64,000 nt of DNA, taken from Bombella dulcis (GTDB lineage: Bacteria > Pseudomonadota > Alphaproteobacteria > Acetobacterales > Acetobacteraceae). Shown here in pieces: positions 51,122 to 62,648 of the stretch. The notes beneath the pieces are model-generated. The model made no database searches. It was given only the letters and a program-made list of their open reading frames with translations, and was not told the DNA's origin. The stretch covers positions 186,001 through 250,000 of the forward strand of contig NZ_JANIDV010000002.1 in NCBI RefSeq assembly GCF_026385505.1. Direction: 5' to 3'. Made by a program: the position numbers and the translations under genes. Numbering within the stretch: the stretch's first letter is position 1; each line of letters starts with the position of its first letter.

Positions 51122-52393
51122 ATGTCTGATTTGCCCGGAAGAAAATACAATGTGTTATCCCTGTTTTCGGGGTGTGGTGGATTGGATCTTGGTTTTGAAG
51201 GAGGCTTCAAGGTGCTTGCTTCATCGATCAACGATATGATCCACCCTGAATGGAAGCAGGATACTGGTGGAGATGATCGGTGGGTTTTGCTCCCAAAGAC
51301 AAGATTCAATACTGTATTTGCCAATGATATCAGGGATGGTGCCAAGGCAGCGTGGGATAATTATTTCAGAAAATTTGGGATGGATGATAAAATATACCAT
51401 CTTGGAAGTGTTGTTGATCTTGTAAGACATCATAGACAGGGAGAATCGGTTTTTCCTCGTGATGTTGATGTTGTTACAGGAGGATTCCCCTGTCAGGATT
51501 TTTCAGTTGCGGGGAAAAGATTAGGATTCAAATCACCCAAGAATCACAGGGGCCTGCTCTCGGAGGATGTTTTCCCTAGTCTGGAGAGTAGGGGAAAGCT
51601 CTATATGTGGATGAGAGAGGTCATAGAGATCACGAAACCAAAAGTGTTCATCGCTGAAAATGTCAAGGGGTTGGTCAATCTTCATGATGTGAAATCAATA
51701 ATAGAGAGAGACTTTAGATCTGTTTCCGAGGATGGGTATCTGGTTGTCGAGGCGAAAGTATTGCATTCGGCTGATTATGGTGTCCCTCAGTCGCGTGAAC
51801 GTGTTATTTTTATCGGCTTCCGAAGGTCTTCTCTAACGCCAGAGGCCTTGGCCGCACTTTCTCAGCCTTCCTTGGATGAACGTTTTGATCCTTACCCAAA
51901 GCCAACACATGCTTATACGAATAATGGTGAGGCGTTGGTGAAGCCTGTGAGTTTGAGGGAGGCTCTTGGAGGACTGTTGGAGCCGGACAAAACATCTGAT
52001 CTTTCCCAGCAAAAATATTCTAAGGCGAAGTACATGGGAAAACATTGTCAGGGGCAGAGCGAGATACGACTGTCTGGTATTGGTCCGACTATTCGTTCTG
52101 AGCATCATGGGAATATAGAATTCAGAAGACTTTCTGCAGAACATGGTGGCATGAATTTAGAAGAACTGCAGACAGGCCTTGAAGAAAGGCGTTTGACAGT
52201 TCGGGAATGTGCCCGGATACAGACATTTCCTGATGATTATGAATTCGTATTTCCTCCACAGTCAGGACGGAAGGGTGTTTCTGCATCTGAGGCTTATAAA
52301 ATTATTGGGAATGCTGTTCCGCCCTTGTTGGGATATCATATTGCGCATAATCTTCAGAGTAAGTGGGATTTATATTTTGGACGAGATTCCTGA
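51122..52393 (+). CDS. DNA (cytosine-5)-methyltransferase of a type II R-M system
   Basis: A 423-residue C5 methylase. Ordered motifs: I, LSLFSGCGGLDLGFEGGFKV; IV, TGGFPCQDFSVAGKRLGF (catalytic Cys); VI, VFIAENVKGLVN (ENV); VIII, DYGVPQSRERVIFIGFRRSS; IX, LTVRECARIQTFPDDYEFVF; X, AYKIIGNAVPPLLGYHIAHN. Between motifs VIII and IX lies the target-recognition region. Recognition sequence cannot be told. Base use is clearly AT-richer than flanking genes (many AAT, ATT, AGA codons), a sign of transfer. It shields host DNA from the endonuclease that starts directly after its stop codon. Confidence 0.93.
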   Translation: MSDLPGRKYNVLSLFSGCGGLDLGFEGGFKVLASSINDMIHPEWKQDTGGDDRWVLLPKTRFNTVFANDIRDGAKAAWDNYFRKFGMDDKIYHLGSVVDLVRHHRQGESVFPRDVDVVTGGFPCQDFSVAGKRLGFKSPKNHRGLLSEDVFPSLESRGKLYMWMREVIEITKPKVFIAENVKGLVNLHDVKSIIERDFRSVSEDGYLVVEAKVLHSADYGVPQSRERVIFIGFRRSSLTPEALAALSQPSLDERFDPYPKPTHAYTNNGEALVKPVSLREALGGLLEPDKTSDLSQQKYSKAKYMGKHCQGQSEIRLSGIGPTIRSEHHGNIEFRRLSAEHGGMNLEELQTGLEERRLTVRECARIQTFPDDYEFVFPPQSGRKGVSASEAYKIIGNAVPPLLGYHIAHNLQSKWDLYFGRDS

Positions 52394-53458
52394 ATGATTG
52401 TTTTCAATGAAAATAGGGTAGATTTATTTGAGGAATTTCGTAATATACTTGAGCGGACGAATAAACGATTGAATGAGTGTGCAAAGTATAAAAGTGAGTA
52501 TTTTATAAAGAGAAATGCTCAACTTTTGGAGGAAGATGTTGCGGATTCTTTAAAAGAGCAGTCACTGGGGACTTCGTTCGAGAATACTATTGAGATAATT
52601 TCCGGACAAAGGTTTCCTGACATCATAGCACGTCAATGTTACGGTGTTGAAGTGAAGAGTTCCAAAGATGATAAGTGGATTACACTTGGGGGGAGTGTTA
52701 ATGAGAGCACAAGGGTAAAGGGTATAGAAAAGATATTTCTAATATTTGGAAAACTGACGGATCCTGTTGAATTCCGTATGCGTTCATATGAGGAGTGTTT
52801 GTCAGAGGTAGTTGTTACACACTTCCCACGATACAAAATTGATATGAATTTGGAAAATGGTCAGACTATTTTTGATAAAATGGGAACAACGTATGATGAG
52901 ATACGTCAACCACCGAATGAAACAGTTCATAAGATAGTCAATTTTTATAAGAAAAAATTGAGAGAAGGGGAAAGTTTGTGGTGGACTGGGAGCCATGTCA
53001 ATCCAGAGGAAGATACGTCTGCTCCAATGACGGTCCGGCTGTCTGGTAAATTGAGTAAGGAAGAACGGGCTGGTTTTATAGAAAAGGGTTTTGCTTTCTT
53101 TCCCAGTATTTTTAGTTCAAAGTCCACAAAGTATGAGAGGTTCTTTTTGTGGCTTGCTACAAATCATGGGGTATTGGCGACGCGTGATTTTTTTACGGCG
53201 GGAGGTCGAGGAATTGTCCAAGGGAAGGCAGGACATGAGTTTTTTGACGTCCCCCAGAAATTGATTCAGCTTCACGATCACTGGCTTACTGTTGCCTCAC
53301 TGATTGTTGAGGCGAATGCGGATTTTTTATGTGAAACATGGGGTGTCGAGAAGATAGAACCAGACCGGATCCGGCAGTGGAAGGGCATGGTATCGGAGAA
53401 TTTTTCCAGAGAATATAAACAGGTTGGGCTGTTTCTTGATGACCTCATTTTCGGCTGA
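52394..53458 (+). CDS. Probable type II restriction endonuclease
   Basis: 354 residues starting one base after the methylase stop (TGAATG). A PD-(D/E)xK-type core is visible: IIEIISGQ-like TIEIISGQRFPDIIARQCYG then VEVKSSKDDKW, with the FPD Asp and EVK acidic/Lys pair. A C-terminal region (SGKLSKEERAGFIEKGFAFF ...) is unfamiliar. I do not recognise the subtype, so the recognition site is unknown. AT-rich like its partner. The endonuclease call rests on the PD...EVK motif and on its place behind the C5 methylase. Its stop is five bases from the stop of the convergent ccm gene. Confidence 0.75.
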   Translation: MIVFNENRVDLFEEFRNILERTNKRLNECAKYKSEYFIKRNAQLLEEDVADSLKEQSLGTSFENTIEIISGQRFPDIIARQCYGVEVKSSKDDKWITLGGSVNESTRVKGIEKIFLIFGKLTDPVEFRMRSYEECLSEVVVTHFPRYKIDMNLENGQTIFDKMGTTYDEIRQPPNETVHKIVNFYKKKLREGESLWWTGSHVNPEEDTSAPMTVRLSGKLSKEERAGFIEKGFAFFPSIFSSKSTKYERFFLWLATNHGVLATRDFFTAGGRGIVQGKAGHEFFDVPQKLIQLHDHWLTVASLIVEANADFLCETWGVEKIEPDRIRQWKGMVSENFSREYKQVGLFLDDLIFG

Positions 53459-53463
53459 ATATT

Positions 53464-54786
53464 TCAGTCCTGTGCTGCTTTTAGGCTGGCTCCGGCCACG
53501 AGGGGGCAGCCGGGCAGGGCCAGAAGGAAGAGGGCTGCCAGCAGGCTGAGATTGGCCGTGCAGGAGGGGCCTTTTGGTGAAGCACAGGCCAGCGTCCCGA
53601 AGATGAGGCTCGGTGTCATGAGAGGCAGGGTCAGGATGGGGAGCAGCAGACTGTTGCGTCGTGCTCCCAGCGTGATGGCTGCCGTCATGCCGCCCGTAAG
53701 GGCCAGGGTCAGGCTGCCCAGGGTCAGCCCTGCCAGTAGGACGGGCAGGACCGAAAATGGAATCTGGAAAAGCAGGGCAAGCAGGGGCGTTGCCAGAATG
53801 ACCGGGAAACAGCTGCTCAGCCAGTGCATCAGCATCTTCCCTAGGGCGATGAGGGCCGGATGCAGGGTGATCTGGAGGATGTCCAGTGATCCGTCCTCGG
53901 CATCTGCCTCATAGAGGCGTTCCAGCGGCAGAAGGCAGGCAAGAAGGGTGCAGACCCACAGGACGCCCGGACCGGTCTGCTGGAGCAGGGCCGGAGCAGG
54001 GCCGAGTGCAAGCGGGAAGAGGCTGCTGCACAGGATGAGAAAGAGCAGTGCTGCCAGATGGTCGGTTCTGTTCTGGCAGGCAAGACAGAATTCCCGGCGT
54101 AGATGGTTCGCAAAAGCATGTCGCCTGCGGGGAGACGGGAAAGTCGTCCGTGGGGGAACCGTGTCTGTCATGACGGAAGACAGGGACGGTGAGGCTCCGA
54201 AGGTGAGCTGACGGCTGTCCGGTATGTTCAGGGGGATGTGGGAAGCCACGATGAGGGCACCGCCACGGTCACGGTGCGTGCTGAACATGGCATCCAGCAG
54301 GGCGAGGCTGTCGGCATCCAGTGCATTGGCCGGTTCATCCAGCAGCCACAGGGAGGCATCGGACAGGAGAAGGCGGCTCAGGGCCACACGGCGTTTCTGG
54401 CCCAGTGAGAGCAGACGGGCAGGACAGTCCAGAAGATGCGCCAGTTTCAGATGAAGCAGGACGGCATGGACAGCTTCCGTTTTATGGGGGGAGAAGAGCC
54501 GGAGATTCTGCTCAACCGTCAGGGCCGGTTTCAGGCCATCTTCCGGCCCCAGCCAGGCAATGTCGGCTGTCCGTGTCACCCGGCCGGCCGCAGGTAGGCA
54601 GAGGCTTGCCACCAGGCGGAGAAGGGATGATTTTCCTGTGCCATTGGGACCGGTAAGAAGGAGGGCCTCGCCAGATGACAGATGCAGGGAAAGGTCAGAC
54701 AGCAGGCAGCGGCCACTCCGCTCCAGCCGGACATGATCCAGCTCGAGAAGGGGGGGTGGCGGCGTGCGGGGCGGAACAGGGGCCAT
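53464..54786 (-). CDS. CcmA-CcmB fusion, cytochrome c maturation ABC transporter
   Basis: 440 residues. The N-terminal part (to about 205) is a CcmA-type ATPase: Walker A LLLTGPNGTGKSSLLRLVAS, signature ARLLSLGQKRRVALSRLLL, and Walker B ASLWLLDEPANALDADSLAL. After a linker (about 206-235), the C-terminal 200 residues are CcmB-like with six hydrophobic segments: LLFLILCSSLFPLALGPAPA, LLACLLPLERLYEADAEDG, LILQITLHPALIALGKMLMH, PLLALLFQIPFSV. The CcmB hallmark LERLYEADAEDGSLDIL is clear. CcmA and CcmB are normally separate proteins; here they are one continuous frame. An internal Met near residue 207 could still start a separate CcmB. No ccmC follows; the R-M pair lies directly downstream. Confidence 0.88.
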   Translation of the reverse strand: MAPVPPRTPPPPLLELDHVRLERSGRCLLSDLSLHLSSGEALLLTGPNGTGKSSLLRLVASLCLPAAGRVTRTADIAWLGPEDGLKPALTVEQNLRLFSPHKTEAVHAVLLHLKLAHLLDCPARLLSLGQKRRVALSRLLLSDASLWLLDEPANALDADSLALLDAMFSTHRDRGGALIVASHIPLNIPDSRQLTFGASPSLSSVMTDTVPPRTTFPSPRRRHAFANHLRREFCLACQNRTDHLAALLFLILCSSLFPLALGPAPALLQQTGPGVLWVCTLLACLLPLERLYEADAEDGSLDILQITLHPALIALGKMLMHWLSSCFPVILATPLLALLFQIPFSVLPVLLAGLTLGSLTLALTGGMTAAITLGARRNSLLLPILTLPLMTPSLIFGTLACASPKGPSCTANLSLLAALFLLALPGCPLVAGASLKAAQD

Positions 54787-54972: not shown

Positions 54973-55716
54973 GTGCTGAAGGCGAGCGGTATCGCCAAGT
55001 CTTTTGGTGGAAATGAGATTCTGCGTGGGATTTCTTTGGATGTGGAACGGGGGGAGCTGATTTCCATTATCGGGCCATCGGGCTGCGGGAAATCGACTTT
55101 TCTCCGCTGTCTCAATTTTCTGGAACATCCCGATGCAGGTGAAGTGCAGGTGGAGGGCGTGACCGTGGCCAGTACCGGCCAGTGGCGTCGGGCGGATGAG
55201 GTCAAGGCCCACCGTCTGCGGGGCCATGTGGGCATGGTCTTCCAGTCCTTCAATCTGTTCCCGCATCGTACGGTGCTGGAGAATGTCATGCTGGCCCCCA
55301 TCCAGGTCAAGCGCATGGAAGAGCAGACGGCTCACAGGATCGCCTGTGAGCTTCTGGAAAAGGTTGGTCTGGCTGCCGTGCAGAACCGGTACCCGGACAG
55401 GCTTTCCGGCGGGCAGCAGCAGCGGGCGGCCATTGCCCGTGCGCTGGCGATGAAGCCTTCCGTCATGCTGTATGATGAACCCACCTCCGCTCTGGACCCT
55501 GAACTTTCCGAAGAGGTGCTTTCCGTCATGCGGGCACTGGATGCCGAGGGCATGACCCAGCTGGTCGTGACGCATGACATGCGTTTTGCCCGGGCCGCCT
55601 CGGACAGGGTGCTGTTCATGGAAGCCGGACAGATCGTCGAAAGCGGTGACCCTGACGTGATGTTTGCCAATCCGCGTGAGCCGGGGACACGGCGTTTCCT
55701 GCGGACACTTCTCTGA
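54973..55716 (+). CDS. Polar amino-acid ABC importer, ATP-binding subunit
   Basis: A 247-residue GlnQ/HisP-type ATPase. Walker A IIGPSGCGKSTFLRCLNFLE, Q-loop GMVFQSFNLFPHRTVLENVM, signature DRLSGGQQQRAAIARALAMK, Walker B VMLYDEPTSALDPELSEEV, and H-loop LVVTHDMRFAR. QSFNLFPHRTVLEN is diagnostic of the polar amino-acid family. GTG 54973 is the first usable start, but no clear ribosome site precedes it. It shares one base with the next gene (TGATG), so they form an operon. Confidence 0.92.
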   Translation: MLKASGIAKSFGGNEILRGISLDVERGELISIIGPSGCGKSTFLRCLNFLEHPDAGEVQVEGVTVASTGQWRRADEVKAHRLRGHVGMVFQSFNLFPHRTVLENVMLAPIQVKRMEEQTAHRIACELLEKVGLAAVQNRYPDRLSGGQQQRAAIARALAMKPSVMLYDEPTSALDPELSEEVLSVMRALDAEGMTQLVVTHDMRFARAASDRVLFMEAGQIVESGDPDVMFANPREPGTRRFLRTLL

Positions 55717-57329
55717 TGACGGGGGCTACGATGATGAAGCGTGTGATGTTTGCGCTGGCTCTGGCCCTGTGCGGGGTCTGGGGGGTCGCTGGTCCGGGCA
55801 GTCATGCTCTGGCGGATGACATGGTGGCAGCGGGTGCGAAGGCCCCCGCATCACCGGCAGCTCCGCTGCGTGTGCCCGGTGCCACGGATGAGCGGGACCT
55901 GCCCTGGGCGTCCGATGGTGAAGCCAATGTTCCGTATGTTTTTCATGACCCGGCGCATGAAGGGCGGATGACCGGCTTTGAGTATGATTTGATGCAGGCC
56001 ATCAGTGCCCGGATGGGGCGGCACGGGCGGTTCGTGCAGAATGGATGGGATGGTCTGATTCCCGGCCTGTCACGGGACCTGTACGCCCTGGTCATTGATG
56101 GTATCGAGATGACGCCGGAACATAAGGCGGCCGTGCTGTTCTCCCGGCCCTATTATGTGACGGTGGACCGGATCGTTCTGCGGAACAGTGAAACGGGACT
56201 GGACACGCTGGAAGCCCTGAAGGGCCATGTGGTCGGGACCATCAAGAGTACGGCTGCCGAGCGTCTTCTTCTGGATCATGACCCATCCAATGTCCGTTCC
56301 TATGATGAAGAGACGAACCTGTTTTCCGATCTCAAGAACGGGCGTCTTGATGCTATCCTGATTGATGAGCCGATCGCCCTTTATTACCGTTCGGATGACC
56401 TGAAACTGGTTGGTTCGCCTATCGGGCGTGTGGCCTATGGGATCGCCTTCCCCAAGAATAATCCCGGTCTGCGGGATGCGGTGGATTCCGTGCTGGGTGA
56501 TCTCATGAGTGATGGGACGCTCCATCAGATTCTGGCCCGCTGGAATCTCTGGACGCCACAGATGGCGGATTATACGGGCGATCAGACCCTGCCAATGATC
56601 AAGCCGACGGCATGGACGGATTATCGCCAGACGATGGAGCGGATGTCCGGCAGCAGCATGCAGGCGATGGTTCATCGCTATGTCAGTTTTCTGCCCTTGG
56701 TTGCCAGCGGTGCCCTGATGACACTCGGCGTGTCGGCTCTGGCGATGGTGCTGGCTGTTGCTGTTGGGCTGGTTCTGGCTCTGGCCCGGGCTTATGGCAT
56801 GGCCCCGCTGCGCTGGGTGGCCGGGGTGTATGTTGAGGTCGTGCGAGGCACGCCGCTGCTGATCCAGGTGCTGTTCATTTTTTACGGGTTGCCCGCTTTC
56901 GGGCTTCGGCTGTCTCCTTTTGCAGCCGGCGTGCTGTCACTGGGGCTGAATTATGCGGCCTATGAGGCGGAGAACTACCGGGCGGGGCTTCTTTCCGTGC
57001 CCCGTGGTCAGATGGAAGCGGCCATTGCCCTGAACATGACCCACATGCAGGCCCTGCGGCTGGTGATCGTTCCTCAGGCCTTCCGCACCGTGGTGCCGGT
57101 CATGACAAATGATTTCATTGCCCTGCTCAAGGACAGTTCGCTCGTGTCCGTCATCACCCTGACGGAGCTGAGCCAGACCTACATCCGGCTTTCCTCCACC
57201 TACTATGACTATATCGGTACGGGACTGATGGTGGGGACGGCCTATCTGCTCGTCGGGCTGCCCTTCGTGCGCCTCGCCCGCATAGCGGAGAAGCGCATGG
57301 GCCGTGTAGTGGCCAAGGGGCACCACTGA
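55716..57329 (+). CDS. Fused substrate-binding protein and permease of amino-acid ABC importer
   Basis: 537 residues. A Sec signal (VMFALALALCGVWGV...SHALA) leads to a type II periplasmic binding domain (about 40-285): EGRMTGFEYDLMQAISARMG, LSRDLYALVIDGIEMTPEHK, FSRPYYVTVDRIVLRNSETG, DLKNGRLDAILIDEPIALYY. Then comes a permease domain from about 320 with the HisMQ core LLPLVASGALMTLGVSALAM, YVEVVRGTPLLIQVLFIFYG and EAAIALNMTHMQALRLVIVP QAFR. Glutamine, histidine or another polar amino acid is likely; substrate is not readable. ATG 55716, with ATG 55731/55734 nearer the signal. The fusion resembles GlnPQ-type single-chain importers. Confidence 0.9.
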   Translation: MTGATMMKRVMFALALALCGVWGVAGPGSHALADDMVAAGAKAPASPAAPLRVPGATDERDLPWASDGEANVPYVFHDPAHEGRMTGFEYDLMQAISARMGRHGRFVQNGWDGLIPGLSRDLYALVIDGIEMTPEHKAAVLFSRPYYVTVDRIVLRNSETGLDTLEALKGHVVGTIKSTAAERLLLDHDPSNVRSYDEETNLFSDLKNGRLDAILIDEPIALYYRSDDLKLVGSPIGRVAYGIAFPKNNPGLRDAVDSVLGDLMSDGTLHQILARWNLWTPQMADYTGDQTLPMIKPTAWTDYRQTMERMSGSSMQAMVHRYVSFLPLVASGALMTLGVSALAMVLAVAVGLVLALARAYGMAPLRWVAGVYVEVVRGTPLLIQVLFIFYGLPAFGLRLSPFAAGVLSLGLNYAAYEAENYRAGLLSVPRGQMEAAIALNMTHMQALRLVIVPQAFRTVVPVMTNDFIALLKDSSLVSVITLTELSQTYIRLSSTYYDYIGTGLMVGTAYLLVGLPFVRLARIAEKRMGRVVAKGHH

Positions 57330-57348: not shown

Positions 57349-58281
57349 CTACGGGTCCCGTGGAATGGCATGGCCCTGTAACTGGTTGTCAAAGCCCAGT
57401 TGCAGGGCCTTCTGCCATTCAGGTGCCCAGCTGCGCATCTGGTTCAGGAAGGTTCTGGCTTCAGGATAGGTATCCGGAATGCTTTTTCCCCAGACAGGAA
57501 TGGGGGCAAGAAGCTGGTGTGTCTGTGAGTCTAGTGGTGGAATGAGCGTGTCCACGAGGCCCACCTGGGCCTGACCATCCGCCGTGGCGGCAACGTGCCG
57601 CCACTGGACGGCCAGAAATAGTGGAGGAATGGGAGTGACACCAAGAGCCTGGAGGCGGGCGATGGACTGGTTGATGAGGGGATTGGTGCTGACATCGCTG
57701 CCCTGGATCACGACGGTACCGGAGCCGATGCAGTCTTCTCCGGCGGGGGAGAGAGGCAGGCTGTGGTTGAGAAAGTTGCGGTCATCGTGGCAGATGCTGG
57801 TTGCATTCCCAGCCCGGTCCAGCGGGATGGGCTGCTGGGTGGCCTGAGCGATGATCAGCCCGGTGACAGCCCCCTGATGCGTGCGGACAAGGGCCAGAAA
57901 AGAGAGGGGGGAGTCGCTGCTGATCTGGGCTGAAAGGATGGGATGCCATTCGCCTCTGGGCAGGGGTATGGTATGTCCCCCCAGGACAACGTGATTCCGT
58001 ACGACTTCCGACATGCTGGGATATTGCAGATGAACCGGCATCTGCCCGGCAGGACCAGTCTCTGCCTCACTGTGACCTGTCGATGTCTCATCGGAGGCTG
58101 CTCCGTGCGACGGATGTGTGGTCTGCGGGGCCGTTCCGGGGAGCCAGGGGGCCTGCTGCTTCAGCCAGGGAGTGGGGAAGAAGGCTGCCAGGATCATGCT
58201 CCCGATGCCCATGATGAAGCAGAGCCGCCAGAGCGGGGCCTGTTTCCATAGGGAAAAGACTGTACCGAAGAAGGTTTTCAC
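57349..58281 (-). CDS. Single-TM membrane protein of unknown function in an AAA+ cluster
   Basis: 310 residues. One N-terminal TM (about 17-36, WRLCFIMGIGSMILAAFFPT) anchors a periplasmic or outer-facing domain of about 270 residues. It contains HLQYPSMSEVVRNHVVLGGH, SLPLSPAGEDCIGSGTVVIQ (with two Cys overall: ICHDD, DCIGS), and GVTPIPPLFLAVQWRHVAAT. Predicted mixed alpha/beta. No known motif recognised. Its ATG overlaps the stop of the upstream ATPase by four bases, so the two are coupled. Part of a three-gene operon. Confidence 0.7.
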   Translation of the reverse strand: MKTFFGTVFSLWKQAPLWRLCFIMGIGSMILAAFFPTPWLKQQAPWLPGTAPQTTHPSHGAASDETSTGHSEAETGPAGQMPVHLQYPSMSEVVRNHVVLGGHTIPLPRGEWHPILSAQISSDSPLSFLALVRTHQGAVTGLIIAQATQQPIPLDRAGNATSICHDDRNFLNHSLPLSPAGEDCIGSGTVVIQGSDVSTNPLINQSIARLQALGVTPIPPLFLAVQWRHVAATADGQAQVGLVDTLIPPLDSQTHQLLAPIPVWGKSIPDTYPEARTFLNQMRSWAPEWQKALQLGFDNQLQGHAIPRDP

Positions 58282-59564
58282 AGGCTGGCCTTGTTCATTT
58301 TTTCCTGTGGCTCTTCGCTGGTTTCCGCCCTGATTTGCCCTTCACCTGCCATGACAAGATGGACATGGGTCCGTCCCTGCTGACGTGCCGTGATGAGGCT
58401 GTCGCTGATCATGTCCTCAATGGAGCGGAGAATGTCACGGGCACTGGCCATGCTGCCCAGCTTCTGCTGCCGCTGGAGAATTTCGAACAGGAGGGCCGGG
58501 TCAATACCGCCCGCTTCGACATTCAGGCCGTAACCACGGATCATGTGTTCGATTTCAAGGGCGGCGACACGGGCGAGGTCCAGCCCACGCAGGGCGCGGA
58601 AGACAAAGATGCGGTCCAGACGGTTCAGGACTTCCGGAGCAAAACCGGCACGACGCAGGGCTTCAGTCGATTCGGCACGCATTTTTTCAGGTTCGTCGGC
58701 GAGGCGGTCTGCGATGGCGTTCAGTTCGTCTGTGGCAATGTTGGAGGTGAGGACGAAAATGGCCCGTGTGGTGGGGACCAGCTCATTGGTGGAAGCTTCC
58801 GTTACATGGCCGTCATTCCAGGCCGTGAGGAATTTCTTGAAAACGTCCGGATGCGCCTTTTCGATTTCATCCAGCAGGACAACGGCATCAGGATGCTCCT
58901 TCAGACCTCCCGTCAGACGCCCGAACGTGTCGGAACCGACATAGCCCTTGGGTGACCCGAAGAGCTGTGTGGCTGCATGGGGGCTGGACATCTGCGTCAT
59001 GTCAAAATGCAGGAGCGGGCGTTCCGTCTGGGTGGCAATCTGCTTGGCCAGATAGGTCTTGCCCGTGCCGGGGGGGCCTGCCAGCAGGAAGACACCAACG
59101 GGCCGGTTGCGGGTCTGGAGGGCCAGACGGCGGCGCAGCTGCTGGGCAATGTCCTCGCAGACCTGATCCTGCCCGATGACACGGGCACGCAGGGCGGCGG
59201 CCAGTTCTTCGGCATTGATGGTACTTTCACGCTGCTGGCGGGCCAGCATTTCTTCCAGTGCAGTACGGTTAGTCAGGCGGCTGAGAACATCCATGAGAAG
59301 ACTCTTTCTATGGCGCAGGCCACGGCGGGCCAGACGGTCGGATGAGAGGCAGTAGAACACCCCGGCAAGTGAGAGGGCAAGTCCGATGGCTCCAGCCGGA
59401 AGATAGCCGGGACGTGCCCAGCTGGCGGCCACAAGAAGCCCGTGGAGCATGGCTGCAGGCGAGAGCTGGAGCATCAGGGCCAGCTGGACGGCTGCAAGGA
59501 TGAGGAAGGCCGCCATCATCAGGGGCATCATGCGGGACAGCCAGGGGATCAGGGATTTCATCAT
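58278..59564 (-). CDS. Membrane-anchored Clp-like AAA+ ATPase
   Basis: About 428 residues from ATG 59564 (GTG 59576 is in frame). Two N-terminal TMs (about 9-33 and 55-74) and a short coiled segment precede one AAA+ domain of the ClpA/ClpB second-ring type. It has ARVIGQDQVCEDIAQQLRRR, Walker A LLAGPPGTGKTYLAKQIATQ, pore loop QLFGSPKGYVGSDTFGR (aromatic Tyr), Walker B VVLLDEIEKAHPDVFKKFLT, sensor 1 IFVLTSNIA, a NRLDRIFVF arginine region, and a Clp-type C-terminal lid with SMASARDILRSIEDMI (sensor 2). It lacks the ClpB N-domain and first ring and shows no visible ClpP-docking loop. Likely unfolds or remodels membrane-associated substrates. Confidence 0.85.
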   Translation of the reverse strand: MMKSLIPWLSRMMPLMMAAFLILAAVQLALMLQLSPAAMLHGLLVAASWARPGYLPAGAIGLALSLAGVFYCLSSDRLARRGLRHRKSLLMDVLSRLTNRTALEEMLARQQRESTINAEELAAALRARVIGQDQVCEDIAQQLRRRLALQTRNRPVGVFLLAGPPGTGKTYLAKQIATQTERPLLHFDMTQMSSPHAATQLFGSPKGYVGSDTFGRLTGGLKEHPDAVVLLDEIEKAHPDVFKKFLTAWNDGHVTEASTNELVPTTRAIFVLTSNIATDELNAIADRLADEPEKMRAESTEALRRAGFAPEVLNRLDRIFVFRALRGLDLARVAALEIEHMIRGYGLNVEAGGIDPALLFEILQRQQKLGSMASARDILRSIEDMISDSLITARQQGRTHVHLVMAGEGQIRAETSEEPQEKMNKASL

Positions 59565-59645
59565 GGGCTTCTGCACTCCTGCCGGGAGGGGAAGTCCCTG
59601 TTTTCACGGGCAGGACGGGATGGGGTCAAGTTCTTTTCCTGTCTG

Positions 59646-60326
59646 TTACTGCACGATCACCGGGACGGCGAAGGATGGGCTGGTCTGGGTAAGGGGGGGC
59701 AGAACCACGACATTATGGAACATGTCCAGCGTCGCAACGGAAACGGATCCCATTTTTGCCGGACTGGTACGGGTCAGCGTGACAATGCCTTCCCGGGCGA
59801 TGGGGAGCAGCACGGCCCTGGCTCTGGGGCCAAGTACGACCTGCTGGCTGATGCCGCCGCCGCTTACAGTCAGTATCTGCCCCGTATGGCCTTCTGCGTC
59901 GGCCAGGGGCATGGCAGCCAGACGGATGCGGTTTTCTTTCAGGGCCGCCAGAAGGGCTGGTTTCTGCTGGTCAGAAAAGACACCGTGCGCAATGGCCCGT
60001 GCCGCTTCATCGGGAGGAAGCATGGAAAGGGTGAGGGCACCTTCCAGCACGGGAACGGCCTGCTTGGAAGCCTGCATCTGCGGCTGGGGCTGAGGCTTTT
60101 CCGGCTGGGAGGCCCGTTCGTGGAAGGCCAGCAGAGCACCACCCAGCCCGACGGCAGCGGCCATCATGGCCACGGGACGCCAGAGGGACTGTTTCTGAGG
60201 TTCCTGTGCGGGTGAAGGCTGTTCCATGACGGTATTTGGCACCATTTCCGGCTGGAGAACAAGGCTGGAAAGGAGATGGGAGCTTTCCGGTACGGTTATG
60301 TCGGGATGGATGGGAAATGCTTGCAT
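59646..60326 (-). CDS. Single-TM protein of unknown function, first gene of the AAA+ cluster
   Basis: 226 residues. A cytosolic N-terminus with Pro/Gln-rich sequence (about 1-48) is followed by a TM (about 49-70, WRPVAMMAAAVGLGGALLAF) and an outer domain of about 150 residues. There PDEAARAIAHGVFSDQQKPA is helical and the terminal region QVVLGPRARAVLLPIAREGI VTLTRTSPAKMG is strand-rich. No enzyme motif. Starts at 60326, 60245 and 60227 are in frame, and none has a strong ribosome site. It precedes the ATPase gene by 81 bases and is divergent from rimP. Not recognised. Confidence 0.65.
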   Translation of the reverse strand: MQAFPIHPDITVPESSHLLSSLVLQPEMVPNTVMEQPSPAQEPQKQSLWRPVAMMAAAVGLGGALLAFHERASQPEKPQPQPQMQASKQAVPVLEGALTLSMLPPDEAARAIAHGVFSDQQKPALLAALKENRIRLAAMPLADAEGHTGQILTVSGGGISQQVVLGPRARAVLLPIAREGIVTLTRTSPAKMGSVSVATLDMFHNVVVLPPLTQTSPSFAVPVIVQ

Positions 60327-60409: not shown

Positions 60410-61072
60410 TTGGATCATTTTTCCACATCGCCGGACTCGTCCGGCCAGTCCGTCACGTTCCATGATGGGGAAAGCTCTCATGGGATCCGCCGTCTGAGCG
60501 GGCTTGAGGCACGCATTGCGGACAGGATTGCGCCGACTCTGGCTGATATGGGCTATGAGCTGGCCCGTCTTTCCGTTCTCGGTCATGAGACACCGACCGT
60601 GCAGGTCATGGCGGACCGGGCTGACGGCTCCCTCATCAGTGTTGAGGACTGCGAGCAGATCAGCCACGCCGTCGGTGCCGTGCTGGACGTGGATGACCCG
60701 ATCCCGGGTGCATGGATGCTGGAGGTCTCTTCCGCAGGGATTGACCGCCCGCTGACCCGTGCGAAGGACTGGGAGCGTTTTGCCGGGCATCTGGCCAGGG
60801 TGGAACTGGACGTGCCGCTGGACGGGCGCAAGCGTTTCGCCGGGATCGTCCTTGGCGAGCGTGACGGGCATGGTCTGCTCCGTCTGGATGACGGGCAGGA
60901 AGTGGCCCTGTCTCTGGATGACATGCGCAAGGCCCGTCTGGTCCTGACGGATGAGCTGATTGAGGCGAGTGCCGCACTGGCTGGTGTGGTGCAGGAAGAA
61001 GAGGCTGAGGCCGGGGGTGCGCCCCGCCGTGCGCCGAAGCTGAAACCCAAAAAGCCGGGGAAGAAGAACTGA
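60410..61072 (+). CDS. rimP: Ribosome maturation factor RimP
   Basis: A protein of up to 220 residues that assists 30S assembly. Core: [81 protein letters not shown] and [18 protein letters not shown]. The tail is Glu/Ala then Lys/Pro-rich ([11 protein letters not shown]). TTG 60410 is the only normal start in the open frame before the core, yet no ribosome site precedes it, and an intrinsic terminator ends four bases earlier. A CTG start inside is possible. First gene of the nusA-infB operon. Confidence 0.9.
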
Positions 61073-61106
61073 TGACCCGTCTTATGCTGGTTGGAGGTCC
61101 GATCTG

Positions 61107-62648
61107 ATGGACACATCTGTTACCCGTCCCGAGCTGCTTCTGGTTGCTGATGCGGTCTCAAGGGAAAAGAATATCGATCGTGAGCAGGTGCTCGAAGCGA
61201 TGGAGCAGGCCATCCAGAAGGCTGGCCGTGCAAAATACGGGCATGAGAAAGACATCCGTGTCACGATTGACCGCAAGACGGGCGAGGTTCGCCTGAGCCG
61301 CTGGATTGAAGCCGTCGAGGTGGTGGAAAACGAGGACGCCCAGATTCCGCTGAAGATCGCCCGGAAGTTCAGGCCGGAGATTCAGGAAGGCGAGTTCATC
61401 GTGGACCCCCTGCCGCCGATTGATTTCGGGCGCATTGCCGCCCAGACGGCCAAGCAGGTGATCGTCCAGCGCGTGCGTGAATATGAGCGTAAGCGTCAGT
61501 ATGATGAGTTCAAGGATCGTGTGGGCGAGATCATCAACGGGACGATCAAGCAGACGGAATATGGGAATCTCATGGTGGAGCTTGGCGGCCATGCCGAAGG
61601 GCTTCTGCGTCGTGATGAGATGATTCCCCGTGAGGAATTCCGCAACTCCGATCGTGTCCGTGCGTACATCTACGATGTGCGTGATGAACCCCGTGGCCCG
61701 CAGATTTTCCTCTCCCGTACGCATCCGGGTTTTCTGGCCAAGCTGTTTGCACAGGAAGTGCCTGAAATTTACGATGGCATCATCGAGATCAAGGCCGTGG
61801 CCCGTGATCCGGGGTCCCGTGCCAAGATGGCCGTCGAGTCCCGTGATGCATCCATCGACCCGGTCGGTGCCTGTGTCGGCATGAGGGGGTCCCGTGTTCA
61901 GGCTGTCGTGGCCGAGCTTCAGGGCGAAAAAATCGACATCATTCCCTGGAGTGCGCAGGCTGCCACGTTCGTGGTGAATGCCCTTGCTCCGGCTGAAGTC
62001 ACCAAGGTGGTGATGGATGAGGATGCCGGACGTGTCGAGGTTGTCGTACCGGATGAACAGCTGTCCCTGGCCATTGGCCGGCGTGGGCAGAATGTCCGTC
62101 TTGCCAGCCAGCTGACCCGCTGGGACATCGACATCCTGACCGAGGCGGAAGAATCCGAACGTCGTCAGGAGGAGTTCCGCAAGCGTACCAGCCAGTTCGT
62201 CAACGAGCTGGATGTGGATGACGTGATTGCGGGCCTGCTGGTGACAGAGGGTTACCACACCATCGAGGATCTGGCTTATGCTGATCCGGCAGAGCTGCAT
62301 GACATCGAAGGTTTTGATGAAACCGTGGCTGAAGAGCTGATGGCCCGTGCCAATGATTATCTGGCTGGCCGTGAGCGTGCGCTGGATGAGCGTCGGCGTG
62401 AGCTGGGTGTCAGTGATGATCTGGTCGGTCTTGGCGTGTTCTCCCTTCAGGTTCTGGTTGAGCTGGGCGAGAAGGGCATCAAGACACTGGATGATCTGGC
62501 CGATCTGGCTGCCGATGAGCTGATCGAGCTTCTGGGTGGGGAAGAACCGCTCGAGGAAGCCGAGGCTAATGAGATCATCATGGCGGCCCGTGCTCACTGG
62601 TTCGAGGGTGAGGGAGATGCTGGTGAGGGAGACTCGAGTCACGACTGA
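61107..62648 (+). CDS. nusA: Transcription elongation/termination factor NusA
   Basis: 513 residues. N-terminal RNA-polymerase-binding domain ([20 protein letters not shown]), S1 domain ([20 protein letters not shown]), KH1 and KH2 ([40 protein letters not shown]), and two C-terminal acidic repeats ([40 protein letters not shown]). GGAGG lies 8 bases before ATG 61107. It follows rimP by 34 bases. Its last 32 bases overlap the start of ylxR. Confidence 0.97.

What the first reader, a model, noticed from the sequence alone, without database searches (positions are those of the whole stretch)
57349..60326. Three-gene cluster around a membrane-anchored, single-ring Clp-like AAA+ ATPase
Seen: three minus-strand genes (226, about 428 and 310 residues), the last two overlapping by four bases. 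The middle product has two N-terminal TMs and one AAA+ module of the Clp second-ring type with an intact Walker A (GPPGTGKT), Walker B (LLDEIEK), pore tyrosine (SPKGYVGSD) and Clp lid. The flanking products each have one TM and a domain on the other side of the membrane and match nothing I recognise. Known: Clp ATPases are normally soluble with two rings or paired with ClpP; FtsH is the usual membrane AAA+ and carries its own protease. Inference: this could be a membrane unfoldase or segregase with dedicated transmembrane adaptors, or a secretion/quality-control device.
Basis: partly seen in the sequence, partly recalled or inferred. Interest (0 to 1): 0.62.

Follow-up and report, generated by a model that had tools for sequence, protein, structure and literature searches.

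The report
Membrane-anchored Clp-like motor with partners
A Bombella-like acetic acid bacterium carries a three-gene unit, also found in many of its relatives, that appears to build an ATP-driven protein-pulling ring tied into the inner membrane with two partner proteins reaching to the outer side; in several small-genome relatives the ring has lost its engine together with one partner.

Summary
Three minus-strand genes encode P0003 (single TM, outer beta-domain), a membrane-anchored AAA+ protein (P0001, one module of the ClpA/B second-ring type) and P0002 (single TM, outer alpha/beta-domain). P0002 and P0003 match no curated Pfam, NCBIfam or PADLOC family. The AAA forms a clade apart from 17 Clp second rings (100/100); no intact member examined (0 of 60) has the ClpP-docking tripeptide.

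The order P0003-AAA-P0002 is a real unit. 105 of 397 sampled family genomes (25 of 102 genera) have the AAA; all 105 also match a P0002 profile. The trio recurs in ten unrelated gene contexts, five of them in Ralstonia, Dyella, Collimonas, Burkholderia and Pseudomonas, but is rare outside Acetobacteraceae.

Strongest new result: in seven small-genome relatives (five genera; at least three changes on a NusA tree) the AAA has an altered Walker B and often no pore tyrosine or arginine finger. In the same seven P0003 is deleted, while P0002 and a full-length AAA frame remain. One such pair shows purifying selection (dN/dS about 0.06).

Best reading: a non-proteolytic inner-membrane remodeller whose ATP-driven step works with P0003, and whose AAA-P0002 part keeps a second, ATP-independent role. 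Client unknown; no paper found.

The parts
59646..60326 (-). P0003: short cytosolic tail, one TM, outer helical hairpin plus beta-sandwich; probable start at M34 (60227)
   Evidence: alignment A3; model mean pLDDT 80.5, ten-residue blocks from residue 91 average 90 or more
60120..60176 (-). P0003 membrane segment (about residues 51-69)
   Evidence: hydropathy
58278..59576 (-). P0001: membrane-anchored single-module AAA+ ATPase (432 aa; 428 from ATG 59564)
59253..59294 (-). juxtamembrane motif MDVLSRLTNRTALE after TM2, strongly conserved in intact homologues, decayed in dead ones
59055..59078 (-). Walker A GPPGTGKT
58929..58955 (-). pore loop 1 SPKGYVGSD
58857..58877 (-). Walker B LLDEIEK
58620..58622 (-). 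arginine finger R319 (NRLD)
57349..58281 (-). P0002: cytosolic LWxxAPxWR motif, one TM, outer alpha/beta domain with two invariant cysteines
58225..58251 (-). P0002 motif LWKQAPLWR just before its TM
   Evidence: L11 W12 W18 R19 invariant in 31 of 31, A15 P16 in 90% or more
57790..57792 (-). P0002 invariant Cys164
57730..57732 (-). P0002 invariant Cys184

Best explanation
The trio encodes an inner-membrane protein-remodelling machine. P0001 would form an AAA+ ring on the cytosolic face, anchored by its N-terminal TM helices, and pull polypeptide through its tyrosine pore without degrading it. P0002 is its standing membrane partner: its LWxxAPxWR segment and TM go with the ATPase nearly everywhere, while its outer domain is exchangeable. 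P0003 is the partner on which, or with which, ATP-driven work is done; the simplest version is that the ring grips P0003's cytosolic tail, or a client it presents, and so changes a P0003-P0002 assembly on the outer side. Shown: motifs, order, conservation, loss pattern. Inferred: ring, topology, direction of pull, contacts. Unknown: client.
For: Walker A/B and arginine finger complete in 65 of 73 loci. ClpP tripeptide in 0 of 60 intact sequences, with the genome's own ClpA (IGF) and ClpB (none) as controls. Trio kept in ten unrelated contexts; homology of the distant partners holds with profiles made from Acetobacteraceae alone (P0003 E 8e-12 or better in six of six outside loci that carry it, P0002 8e-18 or better). 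P0002 in 105 of 105 AAA-bearing genomes. LWxxAPxWR kept in a Variovorax partner without the usual outer domain and, as LWxxAxxWR, in a 64-residue unannotated frame after the Microvirga AAA. Loss of P0003 together with catalytic residues in 7 of 7 dead genomes (8 loci); P0003 found in 64 of 65 intact loci, the other cut by a contig end. Dead AAA under purifying selection in one pair, dN 0.016, dS 0.29.
Against: No experiment, no complex prediction, no client. In Allorhizobium, Variovorax and Microvirga the AAA is intact without P0003, so P0003 is not needed for ATPase upkeep everywhere; Allorhizobium also lacks a recognisable P0002. In G006 P0002 is split over two frames although AAA and P0003 are intact. 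The second dead pair is saturated and looks relaxed (pN/pS 0.41). Coupled loss could be two separate results of genome reduction.
Confidence: 0.5

Rival explanations
1. A membrane quality-control segregase of Msp1 type: the ring extracts mis-inserted or damaged inner-membrane proteins, and P0002 and P0003 are adaptors that sense the outer side. Other proteases then degrade the extracts.
For: Membrane-anchored single-module AAA with no protease motif and no ClpP tripeptide.
Against: Fast-evolving dedicated partners (pN/pS 0.24-0.41 against 0.07-0.11 for the AAA in three intact pairs, synonymous sites partly saturated) suggest a narrower task; a retained dead AAA with P0002 is hard to explain for a pure extractor.
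Confidence: 0.25
2. An assembly or trafficking device for a particular envelope structure (secretion, polysaccharide, respiratory complex), with the AAA as dedicated motor.
For: Outer domains of both partners with weak similarity to PsbP/Mog1-like and carbohydrate-binding-like folds.
Against: No shared neighbouring genes among most contexts (12 components in 27 loci); 20 neighbours scanned at eight loci share no theme; fold scores are at the level the tool calls common.
Confidence: 0.15
3. Plain decay: in the small-genome lineages the operon has no function left, and dead AAA genes are passing remnants.
For: G158 has P0002 broken over three frames and a displaced AAA N-terminus while its congener G079 has a full-length AAA; pair G168/G094 is fast-evolving; P0003 is broken in G134.
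Against: Frames of 402-472 codons stay open in 7 of 7; a crude neutral simulation gives about 7 stops and P(no stop) at most 0.002 in the three cases tried; dN/dS about 0.06 in G190/G232; P0002 matched in all seven.
Confidence: 0.1

Closest known systems
ClpA/ClpB/ClpC second AAA+ ring (Hsp100)
   Same: AAA_2 module with Walker A/B, GYVG pore loop, sensor 1, arginine finger, Clp-type lid
   Different: one module only, TM-anchored, no ClpP tripeptide, separate clade at 100/100
FtsH / mitochondrial i-AAA and m-AAA proteases (recalled)
   Same: N-terminal TM anchor followed by a single cytosolic AAA+ module
   Different: no HEXXH in the sequence; AAA of the Clp branch (FtsH model E 5.8e-05 against ClpB 1e-49)
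Msp1/ATAD1 membrane extractor (start of abstract of PMC12793716 seen in the listing; rest recalled)
   Same: membrane-anchored, protease-free AAA
   Different: different AAA branch; no operon partners of this kind as far as I recall
Torsin with LAP1/LULL1 (recalled)
   Same: Clp-like single-ring AAA tied to a membrane and working with TM cofactors
   Different: Torsin is lumenal and its cofactors carry an AAA-like domain; here the AAA is predicted cytosolic and partners have unrelated outer domains; Pfam Torsin model below its cut-off (24.8 against 27 bits)

Membership tests
Clp/Hsp100 (class I, two-ring) | second-ring-type AAA+ motifs | tested here: met
Clp/Hsp100 (class I, two-ring) | two AAA+ modules in one chain | tested here: not met
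   one module in 432 aa
Clp/Hsp100 (class I, two-ring) | groups inside Clp second rings | tested here: not met
   9 family members form one side of a 100/100 branch against 17 Clp second rings, of which only one carried the ClpP tripeptide; some branches are long
Clp/Hsp100 (class I, two-ring) | scores above curated ClpA/ClpB cut-offs | tested here: not met
   169.7 bits against 1232.1 for ClpB, 161.1 against 993.15 for ClpA; both models cover two rings, so a one-ring protein could hardly reach them
ClpP-partner unfoldases | [LIVMP]G[FL] docking tripeptide | tested here: not met
   0 of 60 intact sequences; own ClpA has IGF, own ClpB none
FtsH family | C-terminal zinc protease HEXXH | tested here: not met
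   absent from the translated sequence, read by eye
Msp1/ATAD1 | classic-AAA branch with N-terminal TM | tested here: not met
   best models are AAA_2/Clp; works-alike only
Msp1-like segregase (works like) | ATP-driven extraction from membranes | not testable with these tools
   needs a biochemical assay
PsbP/Mog1-like fold (P0002 outer domain) | fold match | tested here: inconclusive
   1eq6 Z 8.0, rmsd 4.6, 152 aligned; next rows 7.8 and below; no Foldseek E at or below 0.001
CBM60-like or Ig-like beta-sandwich (P0003 outer domain) | fold match | tested here: inconclusive
   2xfd_A Z 6.4, rmsd 3.0, 84 aligned; no Foldseek E at or below 0.001
Known or candidate anti-phage AAA (DolB, PDC-M37B) | whole-protein match and partner genes | tested here: inconclusive
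   AAA-module hits only (PDC-M37B E 1.2e-23, DolB 4.5e-21); partners unmatched; neighbours of those systems were not compared

The most novel reading that the evidence does not exclude
An undescribed class of energy transducer across the inner membrane: a cytosolic Clp-type ring works mechanically on the tail of a bitopic partner (P0003) to drive change on the outer side, on a platform of the AAA with a swappable LWxxAPxWR membrane partner. In several small-genome relatives it has been turned into an ATP-free scaffold by losing the driven partner and then the engine.
Probability: 0.25. Interest if true: 0.82.

Novelty: new variant of a known kind. Interest (0 to 1): 0.6.

Why it matters
The usual bacterial membrane AAA+ machine is FtsH (recalled). 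A protease-free, Clp-branch, membrane-tied ring found in Gluconobacter, Komagataeibacter, Acetobacter and Gluconacetobacter, with two unnamed partners, would add a machine to the envelope. The natural engine-loss lineages separate an ATP-dependent from an ATP-independent job, and single-gene deletions in tractable species make it testable.

Tried and rejected
Family scans of the partners: P0002 0 families, P0003 best E 0.03. Ten homologues from other loci (four P0003, six P0002 or its replacement) gave nothing above a curated cut-off (best DUF6611 E 0.006, 17.1 against 27 bits). PDB sequence profiles gave only E of 1 or more. Foldseek gave no E at or below 0.001; VIA-align gave Mog1/DcrB/PsbP-like rows (best Z 8.0) and CBM60-like or lipoxygenase rows (best Z 6.4), at the level the tool calls common. 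Not used as evidence of function.

Neighbour genes: 20 neighbours at eight loci outside the family were scanned; 12 had a Pfam hit at 1e-6 and share no theme (transglutaminase, RmuC, FecCD transporter, TonB, glutamine synthetase, impB/mucB-type polymerase and others), eight had none.

Phage or plasmid origin: with the Collimonas AAA as query, no place covers 80% of it in 144 matching phage records, and one does in 1,882 matching plasmid records, the Microvirga plasmid. In viral contigs 135 stretches matched a pattern and 11 encoded a relative, the longest match at 37% identity. Rejected.

P0002 outer domain as a marker of the machine: the profile also finds paralogues away from the AAA (looked at in G021, G188, G349, G089, G355), one with DUF2061 above its cut-off. 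Hits in G096, G114, G294 and G318 were not inspected.

Literature: six searches of the open PMC library (listings and abstract starts seen) and found passages in PMC12041372 and PMC3989265 held nothing on this trio; the second concerns HslVU. Subscription papers and preprints were not covered.

Not done: a P0003 profile search over all 397 family genomes. P0003 counts rest on fetched loci, on 60 relatives with the single sequence (14 of 60 matched) and on 12 chosen genomes with the profile.
Full report
What is there. The three ORFs are at the stated coordinates, on the minus strand, between an amino-acid-type ABC transporter (54973-57329, +) and rimP-nusA (60410-62648, +). The window belongs to a 1.87 Mb genome whose NusA groups with three Bombella species. 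The middle protein has one AAA_2 module, most like the second rings of ClpE/ClpC/ClpB among solved structures. Its N-terminus carries hydrophobic segments followed by a basic stretch, so the AAA should lie in the cytosol; P0002 and P0003 each have an N-terminal segment and a C-terminal outer domain (hydropathy only; the details that do not fit are told under the observation check). In P0002 two cysteines are invariant in 31 of 31 aligned sequences, which fits a periplasmic place.

Conservation. With the AAA as query, 105 of 397 sampled genomes of the family have one orthologue at E 1e-60 or better, in 25 of 102 genera. A P0002 profile hits 114 of 397, among them all 105 (lists compared). Of the other nine, G103 has a degenerate AAA, G082's hit lies at the start of its contig, three (G021, G188, G355) look like secreted paralogues, and four were not inspected. 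I fetched 73 loci of the family (the family as the genome database draws it; some genomes appear twice by different routes): 73 hold a P0002 match and 64 a P0003 match. In the 33 of them whose coordinates I printed the P0002 match lies next to the AAA. Outside the family the unit is rare: 2 of 398 genomes across the phylum and 2 of 385 across the class, and both hits are in the family, one being the window's own genome.

Outside the family. In six of the eight the same order P0003-AAA-P0002 is present; Allorhizobium and Variovorax lack P0003. As the profiles had been built partly from these loci, I rebuilt them without the six and the Roseomonas rows: P0003 is still found in the six at E 8e-12 or better and P0002 at 8e-18 or better, and P0003 is not found in Allorhizobium, Variovorax or Microvirga. 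Among 27 loci compared by flanking genes there are 12 components without shared neighbours, ten of them with the full trio; L124, L195, L198 and L199 are lumped with the main context, perhaps through transporter paralogues. Vertical synteny alone does not explain this.

Modularity. The most conserved part of P0002 is the cytosolic LWxxAPxWR motif beside its TM: L, W, W and R invariant in 31 of 31, A and P in 90% or more. In Variovorax the downstream partner keeps SLWRRAPAWR and matches the profile only weakly (E 1.4e-05), with no sign of the usual outer domain; Allorhizobium has SLWKAAL and no profile match. On a Microvirga plasmid an unannotated 64-residue frame from 9160, ten bases after the AAA gene ends, holds only LWNEASVWR, a TM and a proline/alanine-rich tail. 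So motif-plus-TM looks like the core partner, and the outer domain can be exchanged or absent (inference from sequence).

Not a proteolytic Clp. The tripeptide that docks Clp unfoldases onto ClpP is present in 0 of 60 intact family members (five cut or shifted sequences left out), while the same genome's ClpA has IGF and its ClpB has none. A tree of AAA modules puts nine family members, from Acetobacteraceae to Microvirga, on one side of a 100/100 branch against 17 Clp second rings (long branches, one tripeptide-bearing Clp only).

Natural loss of the engine. In seven genomes of 1.9-2.4 Mb (G009, G103, G149, G168, G094, G190, G232; genera g1, g94, g54, g85, g125; sizes) the AAA frame is full length (402-472 codons) but catalytic positions are changed: the Walker B D-E pair is complete in 0 of 7, the pore tyrosine is lost in 6 of 7, the Walker A threonine in 6 of 7, the arginine finger in 4 of 7, while the Walker A lysine stays in 7 of 7. 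Within the family the split with P0003 is complete: 64 intact loci with P0003 (one of them, L076, a broken gene), 8 loci (7 genomes) dead without it, and one intact locus whose contig ends before P0003 would start. P0003 is not elsewhere in these seven genomes: no profile match better than E 0.1, with five other genomes matching at 2e-21 or better. The gap between the AAA and rimP is 188-238 bases in the seven dead loci against 636-999 in seven with an intact AAA (the 636 is L076), so the gene was deleted. In G134 (L076) P0003 lies in two frames and lacks its first third, while the AAA is intact: the expected intermediate if P0003 goes first.

How many times. On a NusA tree of 49 rows (42 intact, 7 dead) the label needs four changes, at least three forced by well-supported branches; changes may be gains or losses. 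If lost catalysis cannot return, the drawn tree needs five losses, but the backbone is partly open and two rows are long.

Are the dead ones still used? For G190/G232 the AAA has dN 0.016 and dS 0.29; P0002 0.012 and 0.20; nusA 0.006 and 0.17. That is purifying selection on a catalytically dead AAA, from one pair. Against it, G168/G094 is saturated in synonymous sites with pN/pS 0.41, and other genomes show decay with the AAA module intact: G158 (P0002 in three frames, AAA N-terminus displaced), G006 (P0002 in two frames), and a stop inside the AAA match of G163 and of G334, some of which may be assembly errors. A crude neutral simulation with half the observed nonsynonymous divergence expects about seven stops per gene, and none in at most 0.2% of 500 runs, for the three dead loci tried. 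Identity of dead sequences to the intact consensus is highest in the linker and first AAA helices (0.61), the P-loop (0.60) and the first anchor helix (0.53); it is low in the pore, Walker B, sensor and insert regions (0.19-0.33), and also in the inter-TM loop (0.19) and C-terminus (0.25), which vary in intact ones too; the juxtamembrane RLTNR stretch falls to 0.38.

Mechanism. Shown: composition, order, conservation, loss pattern. Inferred: the AAA forms a membrane-tied ring that pulls polypeptides and does not degrade them; P0002 is its usual membrane partner; P0003 belongs to the ATP-driven step. P0003's first 90 residues, tail and TM alike, were not modelled with confidence (pLDDT 45-64); a loose tail would suit a handle for pore loops, but that is a guess. 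Three intact AAAs without P0003 (Allorhizobium, Variovorax, Microvirga) show that the ATPase can be kept for another partner or client. What the machine acts on is not known.

Verdict. The trio is a real unit that none of the libraries searched names; the AAA is a membrane-anchored branch of the Clp group without protease motif or ClpP tripeptide. The link between P0003 and catalysis is the new handle on its working.

Noticed in passing
window 53464-54786 (-): CcmA-type ABC ATPase and CcmB are fused in one 440-aa frame; L075 (G009) has a 441-aa frame in the matching place, while L073 and L076 have two shorter frames there.
   Followed up: partly
window 51122-53458 (+): A C-5 cytosine DNA methylase followed directly by a 354-aa protein without Pfam match, perhaps its restriction enzyme (a guess), after a gene that reads like biotin carboxylase (by eye). 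The two frames had no counterpart in the 20 loci compared.
   Followed up: partly
window 55716-57329 (+): Solute-binding domain and ABC permease fused in one 537-aa protein; frames of the same cluster and similar length lie in several other Acetobacteraceae.
   Followed up: no
L184 9160-9351 (+): Unannotated 64-residue frame after a plasmid-borne membrane AAA in Microvirga sp. VF16, holding only the LWxxAxxWR motif and a TM.
   Followed up: partly
L205 7205-9666; L208; L210: Secreted-looking proteins sharing the P0002 outer domain (LPPGxW), three in a row in G021; one in G188 carries DUF2061 above its cut-off.
   Followed up: partly
L042 (G006) and L193 (G158): P0002 is split over two frames in G006 and over three in G158, with the AAA module motifs intact in both.
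   Followed up: no
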